64,000 nt of DNA, taken from contig JAULBX010023296.1 of assembly GCA_032358255.1 (NCBI GenBank), positions 186,001 to 250,000 of the forward strand, written 5' to 3'. The translations under genes were made by a program, and so were the position numbers. Origin of the DNA: Heterotrichella gracilis (lineage: Eukaryota; Sar; Xanthophyceae; Tribonematales; Xanthonemataceae). The notes under the pieces were generated by a model. The model was not told the DNA's origin. It made no database searches and saw only the letters and a list, made by a program, of their open reading frames with translations. This document shows, one piece after another, positions 14,036 through 64,000 of the stretch (position 1 is its first letter; the number at the start of each line of letters is the position of its first letter).

Positions 14036-14673
14036 GTGCTTGTCTTGTGGTCAAGGTAAAGTACCTCACTGGGGTAAGGAGCTGCCACTGAGTTTGTGTA
14101 TAGCAACTGTATATATGAGGGTTGATGTATTGAACAATCAAGCTGTCAACGTGAAGGTAAACTGTATGCATGCATATAAACGGCAGACGCATTGCATCAA
14201 CATGAGGAATAGCCAGTCGTTAACTGATCATGTGAGGATACAAATGACCGCACAGCCGCTACAAGATATTCAAAAGCTCAGGAACGTATGTCAAAGTGTG
14301 GTTCAGCGTAGCTGCATTGTTCATCTATGAAAAAAACACTGAGAAGCACTGAGACCCACTATTGTAAACAGGCCTGTGGATGTTATGTTGCCACATTCAC
14401 TGCTTGAAGTGCTCCCATCGACCCCGCACATACTCTATGCAAGTGGGCGTTGGGTATATGGACAGCCCTTGCAGCAACTGAAGGCCAATATGCCACGCCA
14501 GCTGGCGCACTGCCTGCCTCATGAGACCCCATATGCACCTGAGACCCAGATCAGGACATGGATGAAATCGTCTTCGCCACCAAGCAGAAACTCACATCGC
14601 CACCCGCCTTCTCTTCCCACCCTGTTGTCCTACAGTATGCTGAGGTGCCGCCGGCCCCCCAGGTGACTTGGCA

Positions 14674-24927: not shown

Positions 24928-27900
24928 CTAGCCATTCTCCTGATCGTTGTCCTGTGCCTGCTTGGCCATCCCACCCTCCGAGGCATAGGCGTTGGACTTG
25001 TGCTTGGGCGCAAACACAAAGTTTGCAGGGGCAGGCCCCAGCAGCATCTCCGAGATGCGCAGCCAGTCCGCCGCATTGTCGCTCCCCATGAGGGTCTCGA
25101 GGTCATTGCGCCCGTAGAAGGCAGGGGGCCGCAGGTGCAGCTGCTGGGGCACCACCTCCAGCACGCCCACAGGCACATACCTACACATGGGGGATTTGGG
25201 GTTTAGGGTTCAGGGTTCTGTTAGGGTTTAGGTTTAGGGTTTACGGATTGGATGGGCACCACCTCCAGTACGCCCACAGGCACATACCTACACATGGAGG
25301 CCTTAGGGCTAAAGTTCAGGGTTTACGGATTTAAGGTTTTGAGTTTGGCTGGGGGTTCTGGCGAGTGCTGGGGCATCTGCCGGTGGGTGACGTGTGCGTA
25401 CAAGGTGACCCTCCTTGCATTTCACGTGCTGGCATTACCGGACAAGTCACACCAGTCCTGCACCCTGGCAATTCCCCCACCCCAACCACAATCACAATCA
25501 CAACCTTGAGTGCTTTAGGGTCATTGTTATCATATGAAAAAATTGTATGATGACTACATGCTACAGCTTTTAAAGTGGAACTACTGTTTATAATCAGATC
25601 ATGCCGCGGGGTTGTGCACACACCCACACCTGTACAGGAAGGACAGCCACTCCAGCAGGGATCTTTCTTAGGGTTAGGGGTTGGGGTTCAGGGTTTAGGG
25701 TTGTGCACACCCACACCTGTAGGGTCATTGTTATCATATGAAAAAATTGTATGATGACTACATGCTACAGCTTTAAAAGTGGAACTACTGTTTATAATCA
25801 GATCATGCCGCGGGGTTGTGCACACACCCACACCTGTACAGGAAGGACAGCCNNNNNNNNNNNNNNNNNNNNNNNNNNNNNNNNNNNNNNNNNNNNNNNN
25901 NNNNNNNNNNNNNNNNNNNNNNNNNNNNNNNNNNNNNNNNNNNNNNNNNNNNACTCCAGCAGGGATCTTTCTAGGGTTAGGGGTTGGGGTTCAGGGTTTA
26001 GGGTTGTGCACACCCACACCTGTACAGGAAGGACAGCCACTCCAGCAGGAACCTGCGCGTGGTCTCCACCCCCTTGCTGTCGCTGCCCCAGTGCTCAAGA
26101 CCGTGGGAGCAGAACTGGCGCAGCATGGCCAGGCGCTCACCTGCGCAAAGGGAACGGCTGAGCGTATTGGCAAACATCCTCTTCTGCTCAGCTGATATCA
26201 CATGCATGCATAATCTTGCATCGAGGCCTCCCAACGCAGTGCGCACTTGTAAGCCCAAGCACTCCAAGCGTGTACGCCTTTTGTTTACTGGCGGGTTTAT
26301 GGGTGAATAATTGCTTCACCCAATGGAAGTCGCAAATGTCAGTGCGCCAGCTGTGCCCTAGGTGTGTGCAAGCTGAGTCACCCACCTGCCGAGATGTCCC
26401 AGTGGCGCTGCTCCTTGATCTCTGTGAACAGCCACGGCTTGATGAGGGCGCCACGCGCAATCATGACGGTGGCAAGCTGTGAGCCCGACACGTGGCGGTT
26501 GTAGTCCTGAAAGAAGGGAATATCAGCAATTTGAAATAGTAATATAAATAATGGAGCGTATTCCAACATTTCCCTAGATGTAAGTGACTTCCAGACTGGA
26601 AGTCCCAGTATAAGTAACTACTTGTATAAAAAGCCGTTTCTGCAATTGCTGCAGATGATCTTCCTCACAACACTCCATTCCTCCTAAAACTGCTGAATGA
26701 ATGCATAGGATCAATACGACGCAGCCGTACCTCATAGGAGAACACATCCCCATTGCCTATCAGCTGCAGCTGGGGATCCAGGGAGGCGCAGTGCTCAATG
26801 TATTGCCAGTCAGCCAGCTTGCTGTACCTGCAGGGGAGGGGGCGGGGAGGGATGACATGGGATGCCGGCGCACATGGCCAGAGGGTATCGTATGCTCTAA
26901 TGCAGACCCAAGTGATTCATAATCCGCATATTTGGATGTATACGTCTTTGCATTCCTAAGAGCAATGCTTTGCAATGGATCAGATCTTCGAATACAAAAA
27001 TAAACTGCAGATTAATATATTTCAGTTGAATAGTTGACAATGCAGGGGTTTATGACCCGTTTAATCATGCAAATGCGCGACTGCCAAGTGTACCACGTGC
27101 AGCTCCATGTCCCACCACATGCAACCTCTGTAGAGTCACGATGTGCATGATGTTGTATGAGGGTGCCCAATACCACGCGCACCTCTGTTGTCGAGTTCGG
27201 CCGTGCAGCGTGACTGCGGCAGCTCCCCAGGAGCGCGCCTTGGGCACCAGGGTGTGCGCCATGTCCTGGTTGTCGCTGTAACCCTGTAGAGTAACGAGGC
27301 ACATGGATAGGGTGTGAACTCATCCTCGCGGTTGCTATAAGTCAAGGGTGCAGTACCCACGCATGACGAGGGCATTTCGAGGATTTATTTGAACAACGCA
27401 AGGCCTCTGTCCCATCCCTAAGGCTTTCTAGCCGCCTGAGCATGCCCTGTTCAGAGCACGTATTGATCACAATACACAAGCATCATGTGGGCCCCAGCGG
27501 GTCCATGTGCATGACAGCACCGAGCCAACCGGCAGGCAAGTGACTACCCATGGCCAGGCAGCAGGTCTCACCTTGCAGATCTTGAAGGTGAGGGGGCAGG
27601 ACACCACCACCTGCTCCAGCTTGAAGACATTTACCACACCCATTCCACCCTACTACATAAGCCAATTGGCACCATGCACTCACGACATGGCTAGGCTGGC
27701 TGCACTGCTCAAAAGCACGCAATTGGCCGCCTAAGTATGGCATTTTTTGTGTGATTAGGTCTCACCTTGCGGATCTTAAAGGTAAGTGGGCAGGACAGCA
27801 CCGATGCTGCCGCCTGCACGACCTGCTCCAGCTTGTTGGGTTTGAGCAGCAGGGATGCGCCCGCCCCCCGGCTGCACACCAGGTCAATGGGGCACCCCAT

Positions 27901-42386: not shown

Positions 42387-45053
42387 ATGACGTCTTCGCC
42401 ATTCAAGGATAACATACTCCGGGGCAAGGTAGGTTGTCCTAAGCTCCAATATCTCCGTGACTGCATATGCATGCATATTGTGTGGGGCTGACATCCAATC
42501 CTGCACCGCAGGTGGCACTGGTGACTGGAGGGGGCTCAGGCATCGGCCTTGAAATCACCCGTCAACTAGGTGCGGCAATTTCTCTGTTTCAGTGGCATGC
42601 ATCGTTGCTTTGGCATCAACTGCTTGTGGGCAGTGGTCCAACAGCAAACAGTGCAAACTGGGCTATAAAGTAATAGCCACTGCCCCATCTACATTGTTAG
42701 TGCAATTTCAATATGTGTGTCATAAGTATTATCAGCAGCCACCATGCTGTGTCCTTGCACAGGCCTGCATGGCGCAGCGGTGGTGATCAGCGGCAGGCGA
42801 GAAGCTGTCCTGGCAGAAGCATGCTCCAGCCTGGCAGCGGAGGGCATACGGGCGCACAGCGTGCAGGGGGACGTGCGCAAGTACGAGGACTGCGAAAATG
42901 CGGTGCAGTCCACAGTTTCAACGTGAGTCCACGGCACTGCAGCAGCAGCACTGGCAAGACACCACATGCCATGGCGCGACACCACATGCCGTTGTGCCCA
43001 CTGTAGTGGCCACATACTGCCAATGAATGCTGACAAAAGAACAAAAATCTCATATGTATAAAGCCTGCATTCATCTCAGATTGTCGTCTGCACAACCCAT
43101 AGCATGGTGTCTGTGTTGCGCTGCAACACACTCCCAACCCTTCACTGCACCCACCTTTGGTTCAGGTTTGGGCGCTTGGACATCCTGGTCAACTGCGCAG
43201 CAGGCAACTTCCTGGCTGCAGCAGAGGAGCTGTCCAGCAACGGCTTCCGCACGGTGCTGGAAATCGACACCCTCGGCACCTTCAACATGTGCCGCGCAGC
43301 TTTCCCCGAGCTGCGGCGCTACGGGGATGGCGCCATCATCAACATCAGCGCCACGCTGCACTATGGTGCCACCTACTGGCAGGCGCATGCATCTGCAGCC
43401 AAGGCGGCAGTGGACAGCTTGACGCGCAGCCTGGCGCTGGAGTGGGGGGCTGCGGGGGTGAGGGTGGCGGGTGTGGCGCCTGGACCCATAGAGGGGACAG
43501 CAGGTGGGCTGCTGTGCGCATGGTCTGCTCCACATGTGATGGGGTACTCCAACATACCACAATATCACCTCCGAATTGCCGCACCCTGAGCATACCCACA
43601 TGAATGCACATGGAAGGCGGCGGAGCAGACCCATCTCCAATCTGCTGCAGGCATCACAAAGCTTGGCCCATCCTCTGCTGACGCCTTCACCAAACTGGTC
43701 ACGGAAACCATCCCCGTGGGGCGCATGGGGCGCAAGGCAGACATCGCCATGGCGTGCTTGTTCCTGGCGAGCCCTGCGGCAAGCTTTTTGAGCGGCGACA
43801 CGCTGGTGGTGGATGGCGGTGCATGGATGTGGCGGCCAGCAGTGGTGCCAAGGGAGATGGTGTTTAAGGCATCGAGAGGTGGGTGGGCGGGGCATGGGTG
43901 GGCGGGGCAAGAAGGGGGTTGCCGGGCAAGGGGTCAGGCAGTTTGGGAGTGTGCAGGAGCAATGATTGTATAATAATAACTTGGTGCAGATGGATGTAGC
44001 TTCTGCTGTGCTGTGCTGCACATGCAGTGGCGTGTGCCTGCATTATTGTTGTTAGCCATAGCATGTGGTACCACATTTCATCAGTCATGCGCTGCACCCA
44101 TGAGAACATCAGTATCCATGTCAAGTGGGTTTAAGGGCGTCCCAAGTTGGCATGCTGAGCCGTGGCAGGTAGACACGCATGTACTGCATTTTGTCTGAGA
44201 ACATTTGCAGTGTGGACATGTATGGTTCTTTTCCTCAAACTTGAGCGAATCTGTAGCTATGTCATACCAAAACACTTTTGACTGATGCACTGGCTCAGAG
44301 GTGTACCTTAGAAAGAAAGAAAGAAAGGGAACGCACAGAGGCGAAGTTAGGGGGCCACTGGCTCGCACCAGGGCACCACACCAGCCAGAACGGCTGGTCA
44401 GGGATAGGCCTTGAGGCCTACTTAGCCAATGCCCGCAGGCATGGCTTGCAAAAGGGTTTGGCGTTTAGTGTACACAGCATAGGAACCTTGAACAGCAAGG
44501 AGTTGCAACTCAGGAATCAGATTGGCAATCACGCTGGGGGCTAAACCAATAGCAGTCAGGGCGTCAAATGTAGAAACTGGGACAATGCCGGTGTTGTCAA
44601 TAGTTAGTGCATGGCAGGTTACTCTCCAGCCAGCGTTTCTAAGGTGGGAAGCCAGGCCAACAGGTCTGAGATGGGTGGCCAGTCCTGTGTGCTCCAACGA
44701 CTGTGCGATGAATTCCAAATTTATTGGGGCATTTGACCTCTAGGAGATGAATGTGGTGGTCCTTGCGGCGGGGTCGGGGCAGGGTCGTGGTCCGAGTATG
44801 CAGATCATTTTTGTCAGCTTGAGTGATCATGATAATATCAGGCTGGTGGTCTGGTGCTGAGGGGCCACTAGCCAGATTGGGAGCTGCGTGTAACGGGGTG
44901 GGTGAGTTTCTGCATCTGTGAGCAGCAGGCAATTGCCAACCTTACGTAATAAGTATCATGATATGTATTCAAGCTTGTGGTGGCCCTGCAGGTGTTGAGG
45001 CCAAGAGCAGGGCCATGGGATTGGCAGGTACTCAGCCGCGCAGCAAGCTGTGA
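42387..45053 (+). CDS. SDRB: Peroxisomal short-chain dehydrogenase, 2,4-dienoyl-CoA reductase-like
   Basis: Six exons join in phase to 295 residues: 42387-42428, 42512-42569, 42763-42922, 43166-43503, 43651-43878 and 44992-45053. Closest in memory to plant SDRB and mammalian DECR2, which reduce 2,4-dienoyl-CoA with NADPH during beta-oxidation of unsaturated fatty acids. Seen: MTSSPFKDNILRGKVALVTG start, GGGSGIGLEITRQLG cofactor loop, SGRREAV (Arg pair typical of NADP use), VNCAAGNFLAAAEEL, GTFNMCRAAFPEL, IINISATLHYG, SAAKAAVDSLTRSLALEWG, VAPGPIEGT and FLSGDTLVVDGGAWMW. As in the DECR group, the usual SDR Tyr-x3-Lys motif is altered (His/Ser-Ala-Ala-Lys). The last exon adds KSRAMGLAGTQPRSKL, ending in the canonical peroxisomal signal Ser-Lys-Leu after a 1.1 kb intron. 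Confidence 0.95.
44420..44940 (-). mobile_element. Broken mobile-element coding fragment inside the last SDR intron
   Basis: Minus-strand frames encode DIIMITQ..., then a HIHLLEVKC motif, then HLRNAGWRVTCHALTIDN and FDALTAIGL. I recall this LVE(I/V)K(Y/F)C ... VTLH order from a nuclease-like domain that accompanies reverse-transcriptase ORFs in green algal repeats. The pieces are in more than one frame, so the copy is broken. Orientation is opposite to the host gene. The family (LINE or other retroelement) cannot be settled from this fragment, and I found no clear ends. Confidence 0.5.
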
Positions 45054-45885: not shown

Positions 45886-48570
45886 TCATTGCCGCTGCTG
45901 CAAGTAGACCCCGCACTCTGTGTGCTCAGAGTAGGGGAACTGGTCAAACATGGCAAAGCGTGTGATGGCGTGGGTGTCCTTGAGGTCCTCCAGGTTGCTG
46001 CGCAGGGTCTCGGGGTTGCACGAGATGTAGATGATGTTGCGGATGCTCTTCACAAGCTGGACAGTGGCTGGGTCAAGGCCCGCCCGTGGGGGATCCACCA
46101 GCACTGTTTGGGGGTTGAATGTGTCCCAGTCCAGTTCTGTAAAAATTGGACACAAAGCGCGCAATCAGTAACACCGTCTACCATGCACACAGTGATTGCA
46201 CACCAGGCGATGTATGTTCTAACAGCTGATTGCGTCCACTGGCATGCACTCTTAAGACATCTCCCACAATAGTACAGCCAGTACAGCCAGTGGACAGGCA
46301 AGCGACAATGTGCATATACACATTACTTACACAGAGTCCATGCAACACCCTTGTCATCAAGCAACGATCAATTGTATAAGTGCAGCCTGTACCTTGCAAC
46401 CGCTTCATCTTCCGCTTCTCCTTCCATGCCTCAGTGAACTCCTCACTTGACATGCGCCCCAGCAGCACATTGTGAACATCATTCACCTGCGCAACTAAGT
46501 AATTAAAAGCTGAATATCAACATCAAATGCAAATGTTTTTTTTTTAATTGGCAGGGTCACTGCTCGAGGGAGTGCATTACCCGGGGGCTATAACTATGAT
46601 TGGTACCTAGCAGGGCTCCCTCACATTTAATGCGCATATGTGAAGGTGCAGCAGAAGAGCAAACATGTCATGTACGCATGGCATAGCATGCGTCTGATTG
46701 AGCGTGTCAGTGTAACTATGACAAAAACAAAGGCATCGCTGAAGTCCCTCAAGAAATGAGGGCCATGCAGCTTCTGAATTTATTTCTTCATCATTCACAC
46801 CCAACCAGTTGCATGCAGCATATTCAGGTAAGCAGGCATGGCGCATGGGAAATCACATGGGATGTGTGATGCAATACAATGCAACTACAGTGAGGATCGG
46901 TGCACATGCACCATGCTGTTGTCATATAGCAAACCCAAATGGCTACACCCACTCTGGACCTACCTCCATATTGTACTTGGCTGCTGCAATGGAACCCTTG
47001 GACACCTCCGTAGCCACAACTCGTTTGAAGTTTGCTGCAAGCGGTATCGTGAAGTTCCCGTTGCCACAGTACAGCTCCAGCAGGTCGCCTTCGCTGTTTT
47101 TGCTCACGTCCTTGGCCCAGGTCAGCATGTGTTGACAGACAGACGCGTTGGGCTGTGAAAAGCACCCTTCAAGCTGCAAAAGGCCCCACCACTGTCAGCT
47201 GTGAGCAAATCAGATAACCGATGATGCATGATAAAACAAATCAACATAAATGGGCCAACGCCAAAGACATGAAGAATGCGGTCTGTCAAGTACACCCATG
47301 CGCGACAAACCCTTGAAAGGGTGTGCCGCACCTGTTTGTATGTGTAGTCCCGGCCATCCACATGTAACGTCTCCAGGACAAAGTCGCAGTCCATCATGAT
47401 CTTCTCCTTCCTGCTGCGGCCAATAATGACCGTCTTGCCGGTGGAGCTGGAGGGCGCTTCCTTCAGGGATTCCTGCAGCTTGGCTGCTGCCGCCTGCCAC
47501 GCTTCGTCCAGCTTCTTGTGGTACACCATGGTGATCATGGACTGGCCGCTGAAGGTGGTGTGGAAGGTGGCCTGCGCCAAAAAGGGTTTTAAAACTTGGG
47601 TCCAAGGGTTTTAACACCTAGGGTTTGGATTTTAGGGTTTAGGGTTTCCTATACTCGAGTAGCCTCAAATACCCAACGTGCGGTGCGCCACTTTTTTGTA
47701 TGCATCCACGTTTGTGATAAAAGCTGAGTGGAGAATCAATCTTGATCTAGATCTTATTAATAAGATGATGAGGCAGGCCACCACCCCGCAGCTATGGCGT
47801 GCGTACCTGGTACAATTTGGTCCGCAGGGAAACATCCTTTGCCACAGCTTGCATGACCAGGGCCATGAGCTCGTTGGTCAGCTCAGATGCCACGGGAAAC
47901 TGGTCAACCCTTCTCCTAGTCATCTTGCCACCCGGCCCCTGCCAGTGACACAAATCCATACTTGATGGCCAAGGAAATGGGCTTGTGGTGTGTTGCAGTC
48001 AACAGCACCTGAGGCAGTGCCAACGCAGCAAGCAAACAGATTATGCCGCACCTTCTCCCACATTATGTAATACGTCTCGTCTCCTTCGTGCCATATCCTG
48101 AACTCTGCCCTGCACAACATCAGCTCCATCAGGCGGCAATGCACTTCACCCTGATATACTGTACACAGCAAAGTGGCAAGTGGGTGCTGCTGCATGCTAC
48201 AGATACCACCGTTTGTCAGAGCTGGACTACCATACGTGAAGACAGGACCAAGTACAGTGGCTAGATTAAGACTACACTACGCCAATGCTCACCGCTGCCT
48301 GTAGTGCTTGCGCTTTGACTCAAACACCTCCAGCGAGGGTGGCTTGAAGTCTGCAAACATCTCCTTCAGCCTGTTCGCCTTCGCCTCAAACTGCTCCCCG
48401 TATTTATCCGTGTCTACCTCGATAGGCGCCGACATTTTGATCTCTGTAGCTGCTGCGCCGCACTGAATGGACAGGGCCCGCCGGGGAGTGCAGGAGTGGG
48501 CAGACCGGGCGCTAACAAGCAGTGGTGACTTGCAGCCTACCAGTCCCAACGTGCGTTGAAAGACTCTCAT
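45886..48570 (-). CDS. trmA: TrmA-type tRNA (uracil-54-C5)-methyltransferase
   Basis: Makes m5U54 (ribothymidine) in the T-loop of tRNA with SAM. Seven exons close in phase to about 420 residues: 48293-48570, 48052-48109, 47807-47938, 47332-47571, 46964-47173, 46393-46486 and 45886-46136. The match is to bacterial TrmA itself, not the RlmD-like type: [77 protein letters not shown] (SAM motif I), [27 protein letters not shown] (catalytic Cys) and [17 protein letters not shown]. The first ~45 residues ([20 protein letters not shown], Arg/Ser-rich) precede the bacterial-type start and look like a mitochondrial or chloroplast transit peptide. Bacterial ancestry is certain in character; donor unknown. 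Confidence 0.95.
47590..47652. repeat. Telomere-like tract in a TrmA intron
   Basis: AAGGGTTTTAACACCTAGGG then TTTGGATTTTAGGGTTTAGGG: degenerate TTTAGGG units next to the acceptor of TrmA exon 4. Confidence 0.85.
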
Positions 48571-52000: not shown

Positions 52001-53416
52001 TTACGGTACATCATACTGAACCTTTTCATTAGGCTACGGCAAACAGAGTCATGGACCATAACCGTAATGGTGAAGTATCAATGGTCTGACAAGCATTGAT
52101 GGTAGCCGATGTCAGTGAGATTGAGTGCCCTTGCAGGAGTTTGTCCACATTGTGCCCAAATCAGAGCGGAGGTTACGGCTAGACCGGTACCGGTACCGGT
52201 TAGACAGCAGGGGCATGGCTGTCAGCGCAGCAATGTCCCTTCCTGCCGCGTTGCCACGGCCATCAGCCAGACTGGAGCCTGATGGCGCAGCACTGCCGCA
52301 CGCTTCTGGCCTTGTGGTGGGTAACTAGTGCGTCCCTTGTCTGAAATACTGGGGGTTTGTTGGACTGCATGCAAGTGATCTTGAAGGTGCATTCAAAGCG
52401 CATGCTTTCAGACTACTTGCACAAGGTTTCTTGAGCATGCTGATCGCTGGCTCTTGCTGGGGAACAAATCAGCAGTGCCCTCCACTTTGCGACAGCCTTT
52501 TTTTGGCATGTTGTTTTAGCAACATGCCAAGGCCAGGCCAATTATTCATCTTGATTTATTTAACAAGCACTGACCAAACCATTTGCCTGGCAGGACACCA
52601 CACCCGCCCGGAGGCAGGGGCCCAGGAGGCGGGTGCAGGCGCAGAAGACCAGGCATACTGGGCGCGCCATGCAGGGGTCACGGCAGTACTACCACTCGCG
52701 CAGCTGCATGCCGATGGCTGAGGATGAGGTTGTGGGTGACTACGACAGTGACGATGAAGAGGATCATGATGAGTGGAAGGTGGGTTGCCAGGAGGGTTTA
52801 GGGTTTACTGGTTGCCAAAGACACCTGAGGTTCAGAACTCGTTCGGGTGCATGTCATGCATGAGCACTGGCCGTGCTCCTGCCGTGTGTAGCGTCGATAT
52901 AGAAATGGTGTAAGCAACGACGTGACAGGGTTTGGCTACGTTTTGTTTCAACTGCCATTGTGCTGGGGGCAGCCCTGCCCGTCTATGAGTTTATAAGGCT
53001 GCGCTAGTGCACGTAATCAAATAACATATCAGTGTCCCAATGTGTGCCCTTCAAGGCAATAAGCCGATGACGGCTGGGAATGCCTTTTGTTTGTTTGTAA
53101 CAATCAGTGGCTGATGCAATGCTCTTGCGCTGTGCAGCGGCGGTGCAAGCGGCGCCTGGACCAGATACACGACCTCACCAAGGTGGAGCGCGAGTACATG
53201 TTCTTGTGGAACGTGTTCACCAAGGAGAACCCCATCAACGCAGACTCCCTGACGGGGGTGGCTGCCAAGCGCTTCACCATGCGCCACGCGAAGCAGTTCA
53301 AGGAGTCTGTGCCCCTGCGCCAGGTGTTTGTGGTGCACCTCATGGAGCTGTGGGACTTCAACCTGATCGATTCGCAAGGGGTGGATGACTGCATGGAGAT
53401 TGTGTCCAAGGCTTGA
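49027..53416 (+). CDS. SUZ12: Polycomb PRC2 subunit SUZ12/EMF2 (VEFS box)
   Basis: Core scaffold of Polycomb repressive complex 2, which trimethylates H3K27. Twelve exons close in phase to 588 residues: 49027-49116, 49267-49331, 49445-49538, 49622-49802, 50068-50124, 50322-50425, 50750-50932, 51248-51427, 51671-51838, 52137-52316, 52594-52779 and 53138-53416 (TGA). N-terminal FVPRNLCYKG matches the segment with which VEFS proteins begin their conserved part. The single C2H2 finger is YTCPFCDLQC...GLQQHLEASH, followed by MFDYVFQYDD. The VEFS box is YYHSRSCMPM, the acidic DYDSDDEEDHDEW, then EREYMFLWNVFTKENPINAD, HLMELWDFNLIDSQGVDDCM. Exons 5 and 6 are the least certain. The gene implies H3K27 methylation in this alga. 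Confidence 0.92.
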
Positions 53417-53419
53417 GCA

Positions 53420-54470
53420 ATTGCCAGTGACTTTTGTGCAGTGGCCTGCTCGGGATATTGGTTGAATCAGCGTGCGTGTAGGCAGGACTGGCAATGATGA
53501 TGCAAACGGTTACCTCTTCCTTCTTGTTATTTCCAGTTGAGGCTTAATCCAGCCTTCTCGACACCTATGGGCCAGGGCACCACGTTGTTACAATAGCGTG
53601 CCCAGCAACAGCAACAAGCTATGGCATTCTTCTATTTCCCCCTTATGTATACGATGTTAGAAGAGTGTTCTACTAATTACTTGGATTTGTACTTTCTTGG
53701 AATGTACTGGCTTGTCCAGGGCCTTGGTGGATGCAATATTATCCAATGGCCAACCTGGGGGGACCCGGTGGATTCCAACAACTTTCCATTGTAACAATGT
53801 CATGTCATGCGCATGCGGCATGCAAGTAGCATGCAAATAACAGTGGCCTCTGCGCACAGGATTGTAACTCAATCACTGACCCCGCTTTCTAATGTATTGC
53901 GGCTTTGGCCCTCTGGGTTACCAATGCCCTTATGTTTGCGATAGCACAGCAGCTGCTATTATGCTGCTACTGTCAGTGAGACTTCAGAAATTGCTGTGGA
54001 CCCATGCAGTCTGGACCTTGTACGTGACTTCGAAGAAAGGAATGGACATCAACCTGTGTGGACTCTTTGTGGCATCCTGCATCATCATGCATTGTGTAGC
54101 AAAGTTGCTACTGTAGCAGGGCCTGTCAAAAACCTCTATCTTGCTCATTCGTGATCAGCACAAATTTGATCCGAATGATGGTGCACCATGGCTGAGCCTC
54201 ACAGAAGGGCATTTTGACAAATACCACCACCAGATTAAGTAGACTTTGACAGTTTTGCTGTATAAACAGTGCACTGTAACTTCATATCTTATATCTGTAT
54301 TAAACTTCGTGCTCGTCTTTGGACTGTTTATGATGGTCTCAAAACGCAGCTCTCTGAACCTTCGCTACGAGGTGCAATAGCAGTTAACTCCCAACTTGAC
54401 TCACGGTGACCTGGTCCACAAGTTGAGCGTCAAGCCAGGCTCTGAGTAACAGAACCGCATTGACTAGTTC
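53420..54470. other. No gene seen (intergenic)
   Basis: About 1 kb between SUZ12 and the next plus-strand gene. A plus-strand frame at 53892-54116 is hydrophobic and Cys-containing but has no splice partners or known motif. Confidence 0.45.
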
Positions 54471-54475
54471 TAAAC

Positions 54476-56499
54476 ATGCAATACGTCAGTAAATTATGTT
54501 CAGCAGTCTTCAACACTGTTGGCAACGAGCTTCGGGCCAGGTTGGCTAAAAGGAAGAGGGAAATTGCAGACTGCACTTCTGGAGGAGCCACTGACAGGTG
54601 TTTAGTAGGTAATGGCCGGCCTCCACTGTGTGACACCATCATGGCATAAAACCACCATACAAAAGTGTTTCAAAACAATGTGGCATGGTGTTTTTTAGTC
54701 AAGCTGCTGCTTGCTATTCAGTCTGCCAGCTACTCAGCAGTGCACAGTGACTGTGCGCAATGTTTTCCATGGTGCAGGCTACAATGATAAGGAGGCTGTT
54801 GGGGGAAGGTGTTCCATGCCAGTGAGCTCCATGCAGGACTGTGAAAATGATGATGACTATGTGATACCAGACAGGCAGTCTGTTGGGGGACCTACACACA
54901 CCTACACAGATATGACAGATGAAGACAATGTCAATGCAGCGCATGACACATTGCCATCCTTGCAGCCAGACGAGTCAGCAGAAGCAAACCATTGCACTCT
55001 TGCAGCAGTGATTCTAGAAGCCTGCCAAGCACCTGAGCTGGTGAGGATATTCTATACAGAATTACCATACAAAAGAAATTGAGTACAGTGACAGAGAAGG
55101 CATTTCAGTCCGTCATTGTCTTTTCTGTTATATTGTATTATGCAAATTGTATTTATGCAAATTGTATGTATGTAATTTATGCGTGATAGGCAAGGTCGTT
55201 GTCCTTTCTATTTTATTGGCTGTTGCCTGTTGCCTGTATGCATGAGACACTCTCAGGCTGATACATGTTGATTGCTTGACGGAGTGATAGCCAATGGGCA
55301 TGCATCATATTAACACATGTGGTGGCAGCTGGTTACAATGATGGAGCATTGCAGGCTCCATCCTGCCTGTAGCTCACCATCTGCAAATGTTTCAGGTCAC
55401 GGCGTTATCACGACTGCAAATCTCGGTGCTTCTACCCATCCGTGACTCGCTGCCGCACACCATGGGGGGCCTTCTGGCACTTGCCACAAAAGGAAAATTT
55501 ATGCCTCATGAGATCACGAGTGAGATGCTTCTGGCAATGCTCTGGATCTTGGAGGCGTGGACATCCCAGTTGAGTATCAAAGTGGAATTGCTTTTTTTTG
55601 CTTTTGTGTTGGGCTTTTGTTCTGCAGCAGATGCCAAATTAAACAAATGAATCAAATTGCATCTCGTCTCATGGCATTGGTGGATGTGTTCAGTGTTCTG
55701 TGCCGGTCCAGATGAGTCATCCGGATGCTATATGGCAGGTGATGGCATCTGCGCTGATCTTTGATTTTCCTCTGCGCAGATACAGGTCATCATGTGATGA
55801 AGTGCTGCAGGACTACACTGATTACTGCACATTGACTCCTACCCGCCCAAAACCTCTCCAGTACTGGCGCACCCAATTGCTGCAGCTCCAACTACAAATC
55901 CTGACTCGCTGCCAGTGGAATTTGTGGCTTGACAATGAGGCAGGGGACCGGCAAAGTCCACTGGGAATAGCACTAGAAGGTCTACAACAGGCAGTCACCC
56001 AGGGAATGGACCTTACAGATGTGTGCAATGTCATTGAGGTTGGTATACTGTGCACAATGTGATGCATCAAGCAATTGCCAAAACCCTACGGTAGGGTTTT
56101 GGGCCTTTTTTAGTTGAAATACTACATATAAGGTGTTCATTCCGTCCCACGGCATCCTGTGACTTCAACTTTATTTTATAAGATGTTCAAAGCCCTGTAA
56201 CAGGATATACAATAAAGTGGATATACCAGTGGATACTGCATTAGTTATTGTAACGTTACTCAGTTAACCACATGGGTGCCTGTCTCAACACCACAATGTG
56301 CTGCATTTCTGCGCAGAAGGAGACAAAGAACAGGATGAAGAGAGCAGTGCAGATACTTGCCGGTCAAGGGCCCAGGATTTATCAAGATGCAGCAACATTG
56401 GTTTGCCCTGCAACAAGCACCATGTACGAGACCCCAGATGCAAGGTCTAGAGAAGCTGTATCACTAATGTCGGACAATCTTGGGAGTTACTGGCACTAG
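54476..56499 (+). CDS. Unrecognised protein with acidic N-terminal half
   Basis: Five exons join in phase to about 378 residues: 54476-54597, 54722-55040, 55396-55581, 55712-56038 and 56317-56499 (TAG). The start MQYVSKLCSAVFNTVGNEL is followed by a basic LAKRKRE, then a ~90-residue Asp/Glu-rich, low-complexity part. The C-terminal ~220 residues look folded and helical: ALSRLQISVLLPIRDSLPH, GKFMPHEITSEMLLAMLWIL, FDFPLRRYRSSCDEVL, QILTRCQWNLWLDNEAG, and a basic end KETKNRMKRAVQILAGQG. No family is recognised. The third intron uses a donor GTGGAA that is weak, so that junction is provisional. Confidence 0.6.
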
Positions 56500-56504
56500 A
56501 CAAT

Positions 56505-57440
56505 AAGTATTACTGACAGCTGCAGTTACTGATCAGCCTGATGCATACTCTGTCAACTTTGTCACTGTGACAGGGTATAGCTGTATACATTGCACGGGTG
56601 CGCCTCACCAGCGACTGCACCTACTGTCCCTCAAAGAGCTGCACATGTGATGTAGACATGATGCAGCATGAGTCATGCTGTACAGTGTGTCACATTGTTT
56701 GCAACAGTTCCAGCTCAAGCAGAAACTACACCTGGATACTAATGGTTACGACAAAGACTGGTGCATACCATTGTGGCAATAAAAGTAACCTTGGCAAGAC
56801 CGTGGCGGCTCTGGAATGATGGACGGATCTTGAGTTATTTTTAACAATTATTTCTGGGGTTGCCACGATTTTGAACATATTGTGGAGTTGTGATGATTGC
56901 AACCTTGCTGCAAGCTGCTGTGGTGAGATTTCGAGTCAACGGTACCCTGGCTATAACAAGTTTAAGATGTCTACGTGACTGTCCACAATTACAAGCAATG
57001 GTTCACAGCCCTTTTGGGAGCCAGCTTGATATTGCCTCCTATTCCCCTTTGTGCTGCAATCCATGTTGAACATTTCAAACCTTGTCATGGCGCAATGCTG
57101 CCTAGGAAATGTACAGTGTGATGGAAACGCTGATCAGACCAAGTTGACATATGTCACATGGCTTGAATGATACATTTAATGTACAAATGGCTTACAGTCT
57201 TCCTGCGGTGGCTGGCCTGTAAAAACATGCTATATTGCCCCACATGGACATTCAGATGCAAGTCTACACAGCTACAAGTGGAACTCTGGCAACAAGATTT
57301 GATGAGGAACACACTCAGGGAGGCAACAGGGCTTCAAGGCAGAATTACTGCCAGTGGGGCAGTCATCCATATTATGAATACCCACATGTACTATTTTTTG
57401 CACGTATGTATACTGCATAGCGTATCAATAGTATATACCG
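56505..57440. other. No assignable gene; one Cys-rich open frame
   Basis: A plus-strand frame (~56573-56819) after a possible acceptor contains a dense cysteine pattern (CTYCPSKSCTCDVDM, ESCCTVCHIVC). It has no start or known domain and could be an exon of an unseen gene. On the minus strand, the place where the paralog downstream has its Kunitz exons, I found no Kunitz-like sequence. Confidence 0.4.
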
Positions 57441-57444
57441 TCAT

Positions 57445-58554
57445 TTACCCGCCCTTAGCATTCTGGCACACTGGCTGAAGTCCCAAGGCGTACAGATACT
57501 CCAAGTTGCCATCCGTTGGGGGAACAGTTGCTGTTAAATTGTCGTTGTACAGAGGAGTGAATATGCAGTACTCCATAATGAGAACTCCAGGTGCTGCGCA
57601 CAGGGGAGCAAAGGTTTATTACTTCTACACGGTTTGCCAGTTATTTTCACCCGTAAGAATATGGTAATCATTGTCATTTCCTGCTGTGCATGAGATGTGG
57701 ATGCAAGCCATCTTGTAACTCTTTAAAAATTTGCTGCTCAATAGCAAGTCTTAAACTTCCTGTGCATACAGCAGAATGCCATGCCTCATGCGGCTTTAAT
57801 GCCGCAACACACCACATTACATTGGTGGGGCATTTGACGCACATTCCACATCAGTGGTGACACTGACTGTGTTGCCTTTTCACCTGTCAGACTCTGTAAT
57901 GGCCATTTAGACAAACACAAGAAGGTATCCATTATTTTGCAGAGATGGCAGATGTACTGTACTCCAGTCAGTGAGTACCAGTGGTCAGAGATCTCTTTAC
58001 GCACCGGTAGTAATTACTTTGATATGAGGTCTAGAGCACACTTACCAGGAGGCTTCAGGAAAAACAGAGAGCTCTGACCAACAGACACCAAAGCTTGGCA
58101 ACCAGAAAACCCGCTGTTGTAGGGACCAGCGGTGATGTTTGTTCCTGGCTGCAACACCCCTGCAGGTTGCATTCAGAAGATGAGCACTGCAAACTTGGCA
58201 GTTGACCTGGCTGTAGGCAACTAGTTCTAACGCAGTAACGGCAATGGTCAGCTCACCTCCACACAGTGTCATGCTCCCTTTCATCACGCAGTCTATGGCA
58301 ATGGTGGCCATGTCATAAAGCCCATTGAAGAGATCCCCTGCAGTGCCAAAGGTCTGCAGCTCCAGCACTGTGCCTTTTATCACGATGGGAGCATCCTCTA
58401 CTCCCTTAACCAATGCTGTCACAGTGGGTGTGTTGTTGGCTGGCCCAATGCAGGCGCTGCATTGCTCAGCAAGCAGCGATGCAGCAACCAATATGATGAT
58501 GGTTCTGGCTGTGCCAGTGTAACTGGGTGCAGGCAGTCTTTCATGCGCCATCAT
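57445..58554 (-). CDS. Secreted NTR/TIMP-like protein, Kunitz-less paralog
   Basis: Minus-strand exons 58257-58554, 58046-58144 and 57449-57593 have exactly the same lengths (298, 99, 145) and phases as the first three exons of the gene at 59627-61685. An N-terminal signal peptide (TIIILVAASLLAEQCSA) is followed by a Cys and an NTR-like module: DAPIVIKGTVLELQTFGTAG, MATIAIDCVMKGSMTL, SGCQALVSVGQSSLFFLKPP, and a third exon with IMEYCIFTPLYNDN and LGLQPVCQNAKGG. The frame then reads into the following GTAAAT, where TAA stops it (57445-57447), giving about 181 residues. No Kunitz or anchor exons follow. It may be a shortened secreted protein or a gene that lost its 3' half. Confidence 0.7.
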
Positions 58555-58799
58555 AGCTGGCAGAGGTTTCTACTTTGGTATTAGCTTGAAGATCGCTCAC
58601 AAGCTGTGTGCCGCAAAGTGCTATTGGATGGACTTCACCAATCTGGCTTGACTGGCTATATGTGTTGGTGCATGCAAAGCCTGACGCATTGTCACCCCCG
58701 TTCCGACAAACGCGTAATATACATATCAAGCCCTTCCTTTTGCTTTTGACAAACTCCAAACTGAGTGAGGACATGGCCAGAACAGAGACGAATTAGGCC

Positions 58800-59620
58800 G
58801 CGGCGTTGTGGTTTGCGGGCAAGAGCTGGGTAGTCACAAGCTGGGATCCAAATCCACACCAGTCAAGTCGACCAGTCACCTCCGAGTTGGTGCTGTGCCC
58901 GCGGCAGTCTGTCTCGGCTCATGATCGATGACCGGTCAAGGGCTTAGTATATGAACATTCGACACGTGGTGGACACCTTGTCGCTAGAGGGGTTGGCAAC
59001 TCCTTGCGACCCTAGCCCAAACCCTAAGGTTAACCTTAAATCCCGGACATTGAATCCTTGTCCCCGATGGATACCAGCCTCCGAGCTGGCTCCTTTCCAC
59101 TCCTTCTCTTCCTCATCCGGCGCCTTTATTTTTGAAACAAGGTTCGTCCCTTGAAGTTCATTATTTATTTACCTGTCCCCACATTGGTTATCAATGGCGT
59201 GAATCTGTGACATTCCTTCCTGAGGGCATGCGAATTGACCCCTCACCCCTCCCAACATGTGTACCATTTGTAGACTCCTCCCTCACAGCATAAACTGAAT
59301 GGGCCACCCACAGCATTTTCAACCGGCCCGCCCTCTTGCTCCTGTTCCTCACCAAACCCCAGCCCCACGATCAAAGTTTGATCAGCCCATCAGTTGACAC
59401 TGTAGCTAGCACTGCTGAAATCCTGCAGGGCATGCATGCCCCAAGGGGTTTACAGCAATATCCCACACATGCAGTACTGCTATACAAATCAACAAGTGCC
59501 GCAATGTTACGCAAACACCTCAATTATTTTTTTACTTCTCTACCTGAAGCATCCTGGTCAGCATATAGATGTGTCACAGCCTTGCATTAGTATTTGTGAT
59601 ATCCACAACAATTTAATCGT
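58800..59620. other. No gene seen between the two NTR paralogs
   Basis: About 0.8 kb. A degenerate telomere-like CCCAAACCCTAAGG piece lies at ~59017. Short plus-strand frames lack recognisable features. Confidence 0.5.
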
Positions 59621-59626
59621 CCCACT

Positions 59627-61685
59627 CTACACAGCAGCAAAAAACAGTGGAACGCTGCCGACAACCATGAATATGAGCATATTCAGAGAGGCACTCTTTG
59701 AGGCAAAGTTGCTGGCAGCTGGCGCCGGACCAGGTGGCAGGGTTGACAGCGCATCAGACAATAGTGTGCCGGCATTCAATTTTCCTGCATCCTGAGAGTT
59801 ACTTGCCGAAGTGTTTCCCTGCATCGTTGAGTTAATGGTCGTCACCCCCTCCACAACGTTCACTGTTGTGACACCATCAGGCGTGGCAGTCACTGATTGA
59901 AATACTGATTGATCATAGCGTTCCACTTTTGTTGCCTCACCATCGGTAATGCTGGAAGATGGTGCAGGGGCAATGAACAATCTGGCGCCTTGGAACCCCT
60001 CAGATGGATTGCAAAATATCTGGCATGCTTGCAGTGTTTCAAAATTGTTGTCGTTGCCTTCAACAGGGCAGCCTCCAAAGATGAACTCTTCGCACCTGCA
60101 CCATGCACAATGCACACTGTAAAATACACACAAAAGTGACATAGACATTACCGGTCTTGTTTGGTGGTAAGTGTGCAGGTTGCTTTTTTTTGGCAGTTTT
60201 TTTTGGCAGGTGCGCATGCATGTTCTGATACCGCATACTCATCACGCACCTTCCAGTTTCAGCGTTGAAGTAGTAGCCCAAGATTGCTGCTCTGCATTGA
60301 CCCGGTTCCATGGGTTGCAAGCAGATGGATGGCACAGTAGGCGACATGGGTTCTGGCTCTGCTGTCACTGCTGACCTGCGCATGGCATGCAATCATGGGT
60401 GAATGGCGTGATAATGCATGATTGACTCAGTCTGGTCTGACAGCTAACGCACACCATACAGCTGATTCGGCTGCTTGTCAATGATGAACAGCTCTGGACA
60501 CAGATGTGGGAACCTATGCATATATGTGTGTGGACTGCATGCCATGCGCAAAATATGTAAATTTACCCGTCTTTGCCATCCTGACACACGGGCTCAAGGC
60601 CCATGGCGTAAAGTATCTCCAAGTTGGTATCGGTAGGGAGAACAGTTGCTGTGAACTCATCATCGTAGAGAGCAGTGAAAATGTAGTATTCCATAGTGGT
60701 CACTCCAGGCGCTGCACAGCGGGGACGCAACATTATCAGTACGCCGTATAGTGTAAGTGTTTTTGGCAGTACAATTGTTGTTATTTACTTTTCACAGGTA
60801 GGCACTTAGAGGGAAATTAAACCAATAAAACAGCAATCTTGCAATGCAGAAGGGGACAAGCGCATGCACGCATGCTGACAACGCTCACATTGGGACCCCT
60901 CCTGCCAACGGATGGTACTTTCCTGGCTACCGTGGCACTACTACTCATGTAAACAGCATCACGCATATGCAAATAAATCATTCTTTGCAACGAGGATGAA
61001 AAGCGCATGCTCTTCACTTCTCAAGCCTTTGGCGATTATGATGGCAAAATTGTATACCCAATTTTGTATTCATTCTGTTGCAGCAGTGGCAGAACTGCAC
61101 GCTGCGAGTAGTAGGGGCCATAGCCCCACCAATGAGTGGGTTTGCACTGTCACCTAGAGCGCACCTGGTGGTTCCAGGAAAAACAAGTATGTCTCATTCA
61201 CCGACACAACAGATTGACATTGACCGGAAATTTTGTTGAAGGGAGTAGCCATAATCTGTGATCCTGGCTGCAGCATGCCTGCATGCGCATTGAGGTTACA
61301 CACCCATTCAGCAGAGTCAACATGATCATAAAGCAAGTCACTGCCAGTGGCAGTGGAATGGCACGCCATGGCACTTATCTCACGCACCGTCATACAGTGT
61401 CATGTTCCCCTTCATCACGCAGTCTACAGCAATGGTGGCCACGTCAAAAAGCCCTCCATTGAGATCATCTCCTGCAGTGCCCAAGGTGTGCAGCTCCACC
61501 ACTGTGCCTTGTATCACGATGGGAGCATCCTCCACTCGCTTTTCCAATGCTGAAGGGGTGTAGTTGGCTGGCAAAAAGCAGGCGCTGCCATGCTGGACAA
61601 GGATCGCTGCAGCAACCAACATGATGATGGTTCTGGTTGTGCCAAAGCCAAGGTTACTGGCTGCATGCAGCCTTGCACGCGCCAT
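59627..61685 (-). CDS. Secreted NTR-like + Kunitz/BPTI protein, probable GPI anchor
   Basis: Five minus-strand exons close in phase to 378 residues: 61388-61685, 61165-61263, 60567-60711, 60250-60375 and 59627-60095. (1) Signal peptide, IIMLVAAAILVQHGSA. (2) NTR/TIMP-like module starting at the next Cys: DAPIVIQGTVVELHTLGTAG, VATIAVDCVMKGNMTL, SGQCQSVVSVNETYLFFLEPP. This follows the netrin pattern (core strand, Val-x-Lys-Gly, later Cys, Tyr-Leu), but the assignment is by eye. (3) Kunitz domain, split by an intron: CLQPMEPGQCRAAILGYYFN, ETGRCEEFIFGGCPVEG, NNFETLQACQIFC. Cys spacing is 8-15-7-14-3 (standard 8-15-7-12-3). The P1 residue is Arg, as in trypsin-type inhibitors. (4) Ser/Thr/Pro linker. 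(5) C-terminal hydrophobic tail LNMLIFMVVGSVPLFFAAV after small residues, typical of a GPI signal or a membrane anchor. Confidence 0.88.
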
Positions 61686-61689
61686 GGCT

Positions 61690-63130
61690 AACAGCTACAC
61701 AGAGGTATCCTTGCTAAAACGTTGAGCTGGGCGTGGGCGTTGGTTAACGATCTGGCTATATATATGCACTGCCAATTTGAAACGGGGCGCGTCCTACTTA
61801 TGTATGTGTGCTGTCAACCTGACGGTGGACGCCTATCAGGTCACACCAAGCTGATACATATGTCAGTCTCGGCTTCGAGGCGAAGACCTGGTCAGAAAGC
61901 GTATGCAGGTGCCGTGCCCGCGGCGTGTGATTACCAATTGCGGCAGGAGCTAGGCAGATCACTGACACCGGGTGACCGGGCGCTCAGCCATCGTCATGTG
62001 TTCTCCACGGCGCGGGCAACGGGCTCATGATGCTTAATGCACATAAGCCCCATACCGCTCGCAGCTTGTCGCTGCAAAGTTGCACTGGGTCGGTCACCGG
62101 GGCCTGATCTGTGTTGCTCCTCCTAGGGTCTGCTGCGACCCTACCCAAATCCCCAAGTTGGCTTCAACCCCGGGGACCGGATAAGGGACATGTCCACCCA
62201 TGGCGTTAATTGAAACAATGTCCCTTGCCACCGTGGCCGCCCATGACCCTAGTACGCACGTACGGCGGATTATCCACTACAAGACACCAAAGTTACTTGT
62301 TTTGGTAAACCGTTACAGTAACCGACTTGGTGGGTGCATGTCGAAATCGCTTGCATAGCTGCTGCCGCATGTTGTCTAGACTTTCGAAGTTCACGCCTTA
62401 TCCAGCCGAGGTTTCATGTGTACCTACTTACCGTGTTGCCGTTTGGACTGTTAGCCCAGGACAACGGGTGCAGTAACAACCCGCGTAACTGTAGAGCCGT
62501 TCAAGCTCGCTACCTTTGGTACCTGTATACATAAAGAGGAGTGACTGGATTCAACTAGCTGGGGCTTGGCACTGCTGAAGGTATTGCAGCCCACTCGCAC
62601 CAAATGAAAACCTGGCCGTCTCAGAAAAAAACCTGCTCACTGAGTACCCAGTGAGCTAAGCAGTCACTCTAGCCACTGTGGGCTAACCCATGGACGTATC
62701 TAAATCAGTGGTATTGTAATCCGATGGGCCCACGCTGGCCAGCTTCACACCGCCAATACGAAGACTTAGTAAGCAAGCTGCTTAGGCAGAAGTGTAGCCA
62801 TGTGTTGACTGAACTTGCTGTATTGCTGCTACTGCAGGCTTTGGGCTTCCATTGCAGCAATACTGTGGACCCAGTGTGATCCAGCTCTAGCCTAGGAGAA
62901 TCATTGAAGCTGTGGTGGCTGTGTCATAACTTCACAGCTATCAGTTCAAGGCCCCTCACTGGAGCACATCGGCACACTGTGGCTGGGTCTCATCACAATA
63001 CGCTCCTACCCAGTGGTTGGGATCACTGGTGCAGCAAGGACCAGCACCACCACCACCTACAACCCAAACAGCGCGGTGCTGTGACACCCGCGCGCCCCCA
63101 CCTGGTGCCATAGTGGCTCACACCTCAGTT
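61690..63130. other. No gene seen (intergenic)
   Basis: About 1.4 kb upstream of the Kunitz gene and of the plus-strand gene at 63.1 kb, which are divergent. It contains TATATATATG near 61760, possibly a promoter element of the Kunitz gene. Otherwise nothing distinctive. Confidence 0.45.
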
Positions 63131-63140
63131 GATCACCAAC

Positions 63141-63780
63141 ATGAATAAAGGGGAGGTGCTTGGAGCGGCAGTCCTCAGCTTGATTGTGCTTGCGGGTATT
63201 GCTGACCCACTGCTGAAAGTAGCTAGGCAGTACCAGCCTCAACGCCACCAACAGAGCGTCCGCCTCCAACAGCGGCATATTGGTGAAGAGTACTACCACG
63301 CCGATGATGAAGTTGACTACAGCACCAGCAACAACCCACTTGTCAAGCGCCTGCTCAATGATGGCCATGCGGATGAGCAGCCTGCAGTGGAAGATTTGAC
63401 AGATGGAGAAATTGAGAGCAGCTCGGCTGATGACATTGAGCAGCCTACCAGCAACACCCAACTAGGCTTGCAGGACCTGGCGCATGATAATGAAGATAGC
63501 CAGGGGCAGAGCAACACACCCAGGAAGTCAGTCTCAGCAGAGCAAGAACTGGATGGCAAGCCACTCCCTGCCAGTCATCTTGTGCAGGCAGTGACCATCG
63601 TGTGCCCTGTTTCTGTGGGTGAAGTTGCCAGGTTCTTTGCGCTACTCAACAGCATCCAGCAGCACATGCGACCCAGTCAGATCGCTGAGCTGATCATGAT
63701 TGTACCCGATGCCGACGTCTCCATCTTTAATCTGATCAGGTACTGCAGGTACAACATGTACTACATTGGGGATCAGCAGC
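63141..63780 (+). CDS. Type II membrane protein, glycosyltransferase-like start, runs past the first exon
   Basis: ATG at 63141 begins MNKGEVLGAAVLSLIVLAGI, a short basic N-terminus and a single hydrophobic signal-anchor. A ~110-residue acidic, Ser/Gln-rich stem follows, and then a folded segment VTIVCPVSVGEVARFFALLN and IAELIMIVPDADVSIFNLIR. This layout, and the beta-strand-like VTIVCPVS and LIMIVPD pair, is what Golgi glycosyltransferases show at the start of their catalytic domain. A GT donor after NLIR (63739) or an in-frame stop at 63783 ends the visible part; I favour splicing into an exon beyond the window. The specific enzyme family is not identifiable. Confidence 0.55.
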
Positions 63781-64000
63781 TGTAGCAGCAACAGCTCTTA
63801 TTTCTTGTCTGCTAAAAAGGATTCCATTTGACTTCCTCCTAGTGAGTTGCATTCTGGCACTCTTGCATGAATGGGGGGGTTATGCTGGTTGGCAAGTATG
63901 TGCAGGATGGCGACTACACTTTACATGTCTTGTGCTGTCACAGCGGCTTAGCGGCTGCGCCTTGTCTCATTAGGTATAAAGTCAACTCCAGTAAGCATGT

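What the first reader, a model, noticed from the sequence alone, without database searches (positions are those of the whole stretch)
59627..61685. Algal secreted protein fusing an NTR/TIMP-like module to a Kunitz protease-inhibitor domain
Five in-phase exons give signal peptide, NTR-like module, a clear Kunitz/BPTI domain with all six cysteines and Arg at P1, a linker and a GPI-like tail. Kunitz/BPTI domains are mainly animal and rare in green algae. Pairing with an NTR module recalls animal WFIKKN proteins (established knowledge). The protein may be a cell-surface trypsin inhibitor; that role is inference.
Basis: partly seen in the sequence, partly recalled or inferred. Interest (0 to 1): 0.85.

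Follow-up and report, generated by a model that had tools for sequence, protein, structure and literature searches.

The report
Kunitz inhibitor fused to TIMP-like module

Summary
The gene is real as far as sequence can show. Five GT-AG exons on the minus strand (61685-59627) join in phase into 383 residues. The Kunitz domain is clear: Pfam E 8.2e-17, six cysteines, Arg at P1, plus a two-residue insertion after the fourth cysteine; its internal junction scores best of 248 GT-AG pairs. The N-terminal module is less certain: no NTR or TIMP match; best is agrin NtA, a TIMP-related OB-fold, E 0.0015 for the module, 0.013 for the whole protein, below the curated cut-off; 0 of 8 exact shuffles matched NtA. 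New: a tandem paralogue repeats exons 1-3 but shows no Kunitz exons; in both copies a TAA follows exon 3 if intron 3 is kept. The WFIKKN analogy is weak (opposite order, most modules absent). Kunitz-A (I2) is already reported from green algae (PMC4189545, passages). Organism and other algal proteomes could not be checked. Most likely: a surface-tethered inhibitor of trypsin-like proteases.

The parts
61388..61685 (-). Gene A exon 1: start codon, signal-peptide-like segment, first part of the NtA/TIMP-like module
   Evidence: hydropathy
61165..61278 (-). Gene A exon 2: middle of the NtA/TIMP-like module, including Cys120
60567..60711 (-). Gene A exon 3: end of the NtA/TIMP-like module with Cys180; an in-frame TAA follows at once if intron 3 is kept
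60250..60375 (-). Gene A exon 4: short linker and N-terminal half of the Kunitz domain (P1 Arg214)
59627..60095 (-). Gene A exon 5: C-terminal half of the Kunitz domain, about 100-residue linker (24 of 97 counted residues Ser or Thr), hydrophobic GPI-like C-terminus, stop codon
60455..60513 (-). Possible 59-nt cassette inside intron 3 that can be spliced in phase (with exon 4 then starting at 60370); no support from the paralogue
61752..61761 (-). ATATAGCCAG, 76 nt upstream of the start codon of A; the same exact 10-mer lies upstream of B and nowhere else in the window on either strand
58257..58554 (-). Paralogue B exon 1 (298 nt counted from the first of two adjacent ATG codons)
58046..58159 (-). 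Paralogue B exon 2 (114 nt, same phases as A)
57449..57593 (-). Paralogue B exon 3 (145 nt, same phases as A); TAA in frame if not spliced; no Kunitz exons detected downstream
58652..58661 (-). ATATAGCCAG upstream of B (107 nt from its first ATG)

Best explanation
Gene A encodes a secreted two-module protein held at the cell surface by a C-terminal hydrophobic (GPI-like) tail. Its Kunitz domain works by the standard mechanism: the exposed loop puts Arg214 into the S1 pocket of a trypsin-like serine protease and blocks it. The N-terminal module is a four-cysteine OB-fold of the TIMP/agrin-NtA type that most likely docks the protein on an extracellular partner. A tandem paralogue (B), or retention of intron 3 in A, would give the N-terminal module alone, without inhibitor or anchor. 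Shown: exons in phase, Kunitz domain, paralogy. Inferred: transcription and splicing, secretion, anchoring, fold of the first module, target class, docking role and the short form.
For: Five in-phase GT-AG exons, 383 aa. Kunitz_BPTI E 8.2e-17. The junction of the model (donor 60249, acceptor 60096) scores highest, 67.2 bits, of 248 GT-AG pairs tested with a Kunitz HMM built from eight PDB domains; the next best is 60.1. The two Kunitz halves are the only ones of 2673 six-frame pieces (12 residues or more) of the window with E below 0.01 for that HMM. No usable separate start: of 8 ATGs in intron 3 only 1 reads in frame into the Kunitz exon, and it gives MRRSAVTAEP..., not a signal peptide by eye, so secretion needs exon 1. 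Paralogue B keeps exons of 298, 114 and 145 nt with the same phases, 66% identity in the module and dN/dS of about 0.60 to 0.66. NtA match to module A E 0.0015; 0 of 8 exact shuffles match NtA, nor do a reversal and an inexact hand scramble. Smith-Waterman against agrin NtA exceeds all of 2000 shuffles for both A and B.
Against: NtA is below Pfam's gathering score (18.8 for the module and 15.8 for the whole protein, against 25.1), NRG2_N also matches the same stretch weakly (E 0.012), and full-length B matches no Pfam family up to E 10. Profile A1 reaches agrin in the PDB only at E 0.14; single-sequence A only at E 0.67, behind an unrelated chain, and B does not list agrin. Agrin was chosen for the Smith-Waterman test after the Pfam hit, and for B the margin is small (57 against a best shuffle of 55). 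The Kunitz domain has an atypical two-residue insertion by the secondary binding loop, which could alter or weaken inhibition. Constraint on the A/B module is modest. No transcript, protein, signal-peptide or GPI predictor was available.
Confidence: 0.6

Rival explanations
1. Exon 3 normally ends at the TAA just behind it, so both A and B encode NtA/TIMP-like proteins without a Kunitz domain, and the Kunitz exons belong to a separate or decaying transcript.
For: In both copies reading on from exon 3 meets TAA immediately after ...GG; B shows no Kunitz exons. TGTAA motifs lie 250 and 453 nt behind the TAA of B, but one also lies 173 nt behind the stop of A's exon 5; about one per 900 nt is expected by chance (own estimate).
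Against: The Kunitz exons are intact, in phase, behind an intron of only 191 nt, and show no signal peptide or usable start of their own; GGGTAAAT is also a plausible splice donor.
Confidence: 0.17
2. The Kunitz domain is not an inhibitor but a binding module (as some animal Kunitz domains are, recalled), and the protein is a surface adhesion or recognition factor.
For: Two-residue insertion beside the fourth cysteine; long linker and GPI-like tail.
Against: G-Q-C-R-A segment with basic P1 and all six cysteines.
Confidence: 0.15
3. A short cassette exon (60455-60513) lies between exons 3 and 4, so the real protein has six exons and a somewhat longer linker before the Kunitz domain (compatible with the main reading).
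For: It can be spliced in phase and reads FPHLCPELFIIDKQPNQLY without a stop.
Against: No match elsewhere in the window beyond itself (best other E 0.62), so no support from B; its acceptor ends in ATAG while the four acceptors of the five-exon model end in GCAG; it adds a fifth cysteine to the module.
Confidence: 0.12
4. The gene reached the alga from an animal by horizontal transfer, or the contig is animal contamination.
For: Kunitz-A inhibitors are mainly animal (PMC4189545, passages).
Against: An intron cuts the Kunitz domain at Arg228/Cys229 in phase 2 and no intron closes its 3' side, unlike the one-exon-per-domain exon-shuffling model cited in PMC3427181 (passages; the animal phase 1-1 rule is recalled). 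I2 is already reported in green algae. No animal or algal proteome could be searched.
Confidence: 0.07

Closest known systems
Kunitz/BPTI family (Pfam PF00014, MEROPS I2/I02)
   Same: Full-length profile match, six cysteines, Gly-x-Cys-Arg-Ala reactive-site segment, basic P1
   Different: Two-residue insertion between the fourth and fifth cysteines; domain split by a phase-2 intron; fused behind an NtA/TIMP-like module
Agrin NtA domain (Pfam PF03146), a TIMP-related OB-fold
   Same: Weak sequence match over residues 46-136 of A; Cys120 of A aligns with a cysteine of agrin in the stretch before ...VS...FF
   Different: Below the curated cut-off; predicted mature N-terminus is Cys1 where agrin has Asn1-Cys2 (PMC3439447, passages)
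TIMP (Pfam PF00965)
   Same: Cysteine inferred as first mature residue in both paralogues; one inferred disulphide in the TIMP/NtA position
   Different: No profile match; second cysteine of the TIMP C-x-C start is absent (CFL, CIG)
WFIKKN/GASP proteins
   Same: A Kunitz domain and an NTR-like domain in one secreted protein
   Different: Opposite order, one Kunitz instead of two, no WAP, follistatin/Kazal or Ig module found
Green-algal I2 Kunitz-A inhibitors (Chlorophyceae, Trebouxiophyceae; PMC4189545)
   Same: Same inhibitor family in green algae (passages)
   Different: The passages seen give no domain architecture for them, so whether they carry an NTR-like module is unknown

Membership tests
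Kunitz/BPTI (PF00014) | Profile score above the curated cut-off over the whole domain | tested here: met
   61.6 bits against 21, profile positions 1-52 of 53
Kunitz/BPTI (PF00014) | Six cysteines in canonical spacing | tested here: inconclusive
   All six present; the stretch between the fourth and fifth is two residues longer than in the eight domains aligned (alignments of 4 of the 132 matched sequences were shown)
Kunitz/BPTI (PF00014) | P1 residue fit for trypsin-like proteases | tested here: met
   Arg214 directly after the second cysteine; that this position is P1 is recalled
Kunitz/BPTI (PF00014) | Inhibits a serine protease | not testable with these tools
   Needs an assay
NTR (PF01759) / TIMP (PF00965) | Profile match | tested here: not met
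   Neither listed up to E 10 for whole A, whole B or the mature module of A (HMMER's filters drop most matches above about 0.1); accessions recalled
TIMP (PF00965) | Mature protein starts Cys-x-Cys | tested here: not met
   CFL in A, CIG in B; the first Cys as mature residue 1 is inferred, no signal-peptide predictor was run
Agrin NtA (PF03146) | Profile score above the curated cut-off | tested here: not met
   18.8 bits (module) and 15.8 bits (whole protein) against 25.1; so only 'resembles'
WFIKKN/GASP | WAP, follistatin/Kazal, Ig, two Kunitz, C-terminal NTR | tested here: not met
   Only one Kunitz passes a curated cut-off; order reversed compared with PMC3427181 (passages)
GPI-anchored proteins | Hydrophobic C-terminus without a cytoplasmic tail | tested here: met
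   Last 17 residues have mean hydropathy 2.46, the highest window of the protein
GPI-anchored proteins | Recognised cleavage and attachment site | not tested
   No predictor was available

The most novel reading that the evidence does not exclude
A bifunctional algal surface inhibitor of two protease classes: the mature N-terminal cysteine of the TIMP/NtA-like module chelates the zinc of a cell-wall-degrading metalloprotease (gametolysin type, recalled) while the Kunitz loop blocks a serine protease, with paralogue B or intron-3 retention supplying a metalloprotease-only form.
Probability: 0.06. Interest if true: 0.8.

Novelty: new variant of a known kind. Interest (0 to 1): 0.42.

Why it matters
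Kunitz/BPTI inhibitors are mainly animal (PMC4189545, passages). A surface-tethered algal one, built on a module that resembles animal matrix proteins and flanked by a copy without the inhibitor part, would give a handle on how algae control extracellular proteases of their own or of grazers and microbes, and on whether animal-looking extracellular modules predate animals or were assembled twice. Agrin NtA fails to inhibit MMPs, which its authors ascribe to a missing cysteine at position 1 (PMC3439447, passages); these modules are predicted to have one, which is directly testable.

Tried and rejected
No whole genome is held for the window (error), so neither paralogue counts nor organism could be checked. 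Scans for relatives gave nothing: full protein in viral contigs, 3 stretches matched a pattern, 0 confirmed; module alignment A1 in viral contigs, 43 stretches, 0 confirmed; A1 in bacterial and archaeal genomes, 38 stretches, 0 confirmed. By their descriptions these collections are viral or prokaryotic, so this says nothing about algal relatives.

Kunitz exons behind paralogue B: tblastn against 54000-57460 gave best E 0.75 for the N-terminal half, 0.17 for the C-terminal half and 0.11 for the tail in a very small search space, all short chance-like pieces. Rejected as hits.

WFIKKN orthology: rejected on order and content. TIMP membership: rejected (no profile match, no C-x-C). DNA similarity between 59100-62600 and 54500-59100 (E up to 0.01) is confined to three stretches overlapping the three shared exons, so no wider recent duplication could be traced.

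Twenty window ORFs away from the gene were scanned in Pfam for context: 6 of 10 had a family at E 0.01 or better, 0 of 10 at E 0.001 or better; none names the organism.

Literature: all ten searches used. No listed title or abstract start is about an NTR/NtA-Kunitz protein in algae; the searches were narrow, cover open-licence papers only, and one search listed 20 of 80 papers and one search listed 10 of 23. Papers seen: PMC4189545 (12 of 27 places), PMC3427181 (12 of 12) and PMC3439447 (12 of 19) as passages for the terms searched; all others as search listings only.

Weak points of controls: the first scramble was typed by hand and is not an exact shuffle (checked); the second is the exact reversal. 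The eight shuffles are exact; 2 of 8 matched some family (E 0.18 and 0.94), none NtA. Agrin was chosen for the Smith-Waterman test after it had come up as a hit, so that test is not independent of the discovery. The dN/dS estimate covers 182 aligned codons; codons opposite gaps were dropped.

Full report
What is there. On the minus strand five exons (61388-61685, 61165-61278, 60567-60711, 60250-60375, 59627-60095) have GT-AG introns of phases 1, 1, 2, 2 and join into an open frame of 1152 nt that ends at the stop codon at 59627-59629. It begins with a hydrophobic stretch ending GSA-C and ends with a hydrophobic tail without following charges; these are the only two places where a 17-residue window has mean hydropathy of 1.6 or more. 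Ten cysteines: 36, 89, 120, 180 in the first module and 204, 213, 229, 237, 252, 256 in the Kunitz domain. There are five N-glycosylation sequons. Signal-peptide cleavage and GPI anchoring are inferences; no predictor was available.

The Kunitz domain is clear. Pfam gives 61.6 bits and E 8.2e-17 for the whole protein (cut-off 21), and 65.3 bits for the 53-residue domain alone. Each half is significant before any splicing (27.6 and 24.1 bits). A profile built from eight Kunitz domains printed was run over all 248 GT-AG pairs between 60392 and 59941 with an intron of at least 50 nt; the pair of the model, donor 60249 and acceptor 60096, scores best (67.2 bits; next 60.1), and of 2673 six-frame pieces of the window only the two halves pass E 0.01, the next being 0.34. 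The residue after the second cysteine is Arg214, the P1 position by BPTI numbering (recalled). They sit by the secondary binding loop (recalled) and may shift specificity (inference).

The N-terminal module is probably, not certainly, of the TIMP/NtA OB-fold kind. No NTR or TIMP family is listed up to E 10. The best match of the mature module is agrin NtA, E 0.0015, 18.8 bits against a curated 25.1; in the whole protein NtA has E 0.013 (15.8 bits); NRG2_N matches the same stretch at E 0.012 (module) and 0.078 (whole), and Tir_receptor_C touches the linker at E 0.047, all below their cut-offs; full-length B matches nothing. In controls 0 of 8 exact shuffles matched NtA, nor did a reversal or an inexact hand scramble. 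The A/B profile finds five agrin sequences first among 7 PDB matches, but at E 0.14 to 0.44. Single-sequence A finds agrin at E 0.67, behind an unrelated carbonic-anhydrase-like chain, and B does not find it. Smith-Waterman scores to agrin NtA are 65 (A) and 57 (B); the best of 2000 shuffles were 48 and 55, agrin having been picked after the Pfam hit. A cysteine of agrin falls on Cys120 of A; agrin NtA has one disulphide, Cys2 to Cys74 of a loop (PMC3439447, passages), so Cys36-Cys120 is a plausible disulphide (inference; that the aligned agrin cysteine is Cys74 was not checked by numbering).

A tandem copy changes the picture. Copy B starts 3.1 kb further on (58554), 1.1 kb behind the stop of A, on the same strand. 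It repeats exons 1 to 3 with exon lengths 298, 114 and 145 nt, the same phases and GT donors. The modules are 66% identical. NG86, LWL85 and YN00 give dN 0.235/0.245/0.242 and dS 0.394/0.373/0.366 over 182 aligned codons, a ratio of about 0.60 to 0.66, and changes by codon position are 42, 31, 51: frame and splice sites are kept, but constraint is modest. DNA similarity is limited to three stretches overlapping the shared exons. Both copies have the 10-mer ATATAGCCAG 76 and 107 nt upstream of the (first) ATG, its only two exact places in the window; it was noticed by eye first. No Kunitz exon or tail was found behind B. In both copies an unspliced exon 3 runs straight into TAA after ...GG. So A could make a Kunitz-less secreted form by keeping intron 3, and B may make only that form; this is inference without transcripts.

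Do the first module and the Kunitz exons belong together? Intron 3 is 191 nt. Of 8 ATGs in it, one reads in frame into the Kunitz exon and it gives no signal peptide by eye. A six-cysteine domain needs the secretory route (established knowledge), so exon 1 is the only visible source of a signal. A 59-nt cassette (60455-60513) could also be spliced in phase; it has no counterpart near B and a less typical acceptor, and is listed as a rival.

How it most likely works. Secretion, then a surface tether; the Kunitz loop blocks a trypsin-like serine protease by the standard mechanism; the first module docks on a partner. Agrin NtA does not inhibit matrix metalloproteases, which the authors ascribe to the missing cysteine at position 1 (PMC3439447, passages). 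Both modules here are predicted to start with Cys, but lack the second Cys of TIMPs. That leaves a bold dual-inhibitor reading open at low probability.

Known or new. PMC4189545 (passages) lists I2 Kunitz-A for Chlorophyta (Chlorophyceae, Trebouxiophyceae) and says its BLAST found it only in C. reinhardtii, with MEROPS showing other algae. WFIKKN/GASP has a different module set and order, with NTR added at the 3' end (PMC3427181, passages). The Kunitz domain here is cut by a phase-2 intron at Arg228/Cys229, which does not fit a one-exon module moved by exon shuffling. The listings of ten literature searches showed no paper on an NTR/NtA-Kunitz pairing in algae, but they were narrow, partly capped, and no algal proteome could be searched, so how novel the architecture is stays open. 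I rate it a new variant of a known kind.

Noticed in passing
58554-57449 (-): Tandem paralogue of the N-terminal module with the same three exons and phases but no detectable Kunitz exons.
   Followed up: yes
53063-53416 (+): Fragment of a VEFS-box (SUZ12/EMF2-type Polycomb) protein, Pfam E 3.6e-19, in keeping with a eukaryotic source.
   Followed up: no
63114-63785 (+): ORF whose first Met is followed by a membrane-anchor-like segment (by eye) and with a weak DUF6492 match below cut-off (E 0.0064).
   Followed up: no
13316-14050 (-), 16471-17133 (+), 43062-43586 (+), 47125-47610 (-): ORFs with Pfam matches to lysine methyltransferase (Methyltransf_16), TIP41, short-chain dehydrogenase and tRNA (uracil-5-) methyltransferase.
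   Followed up: no
within 25742-26192: A run of unknown bases (read as X in translation), probably an assembly gap; its exact ends were not measured.
   Followed up: no
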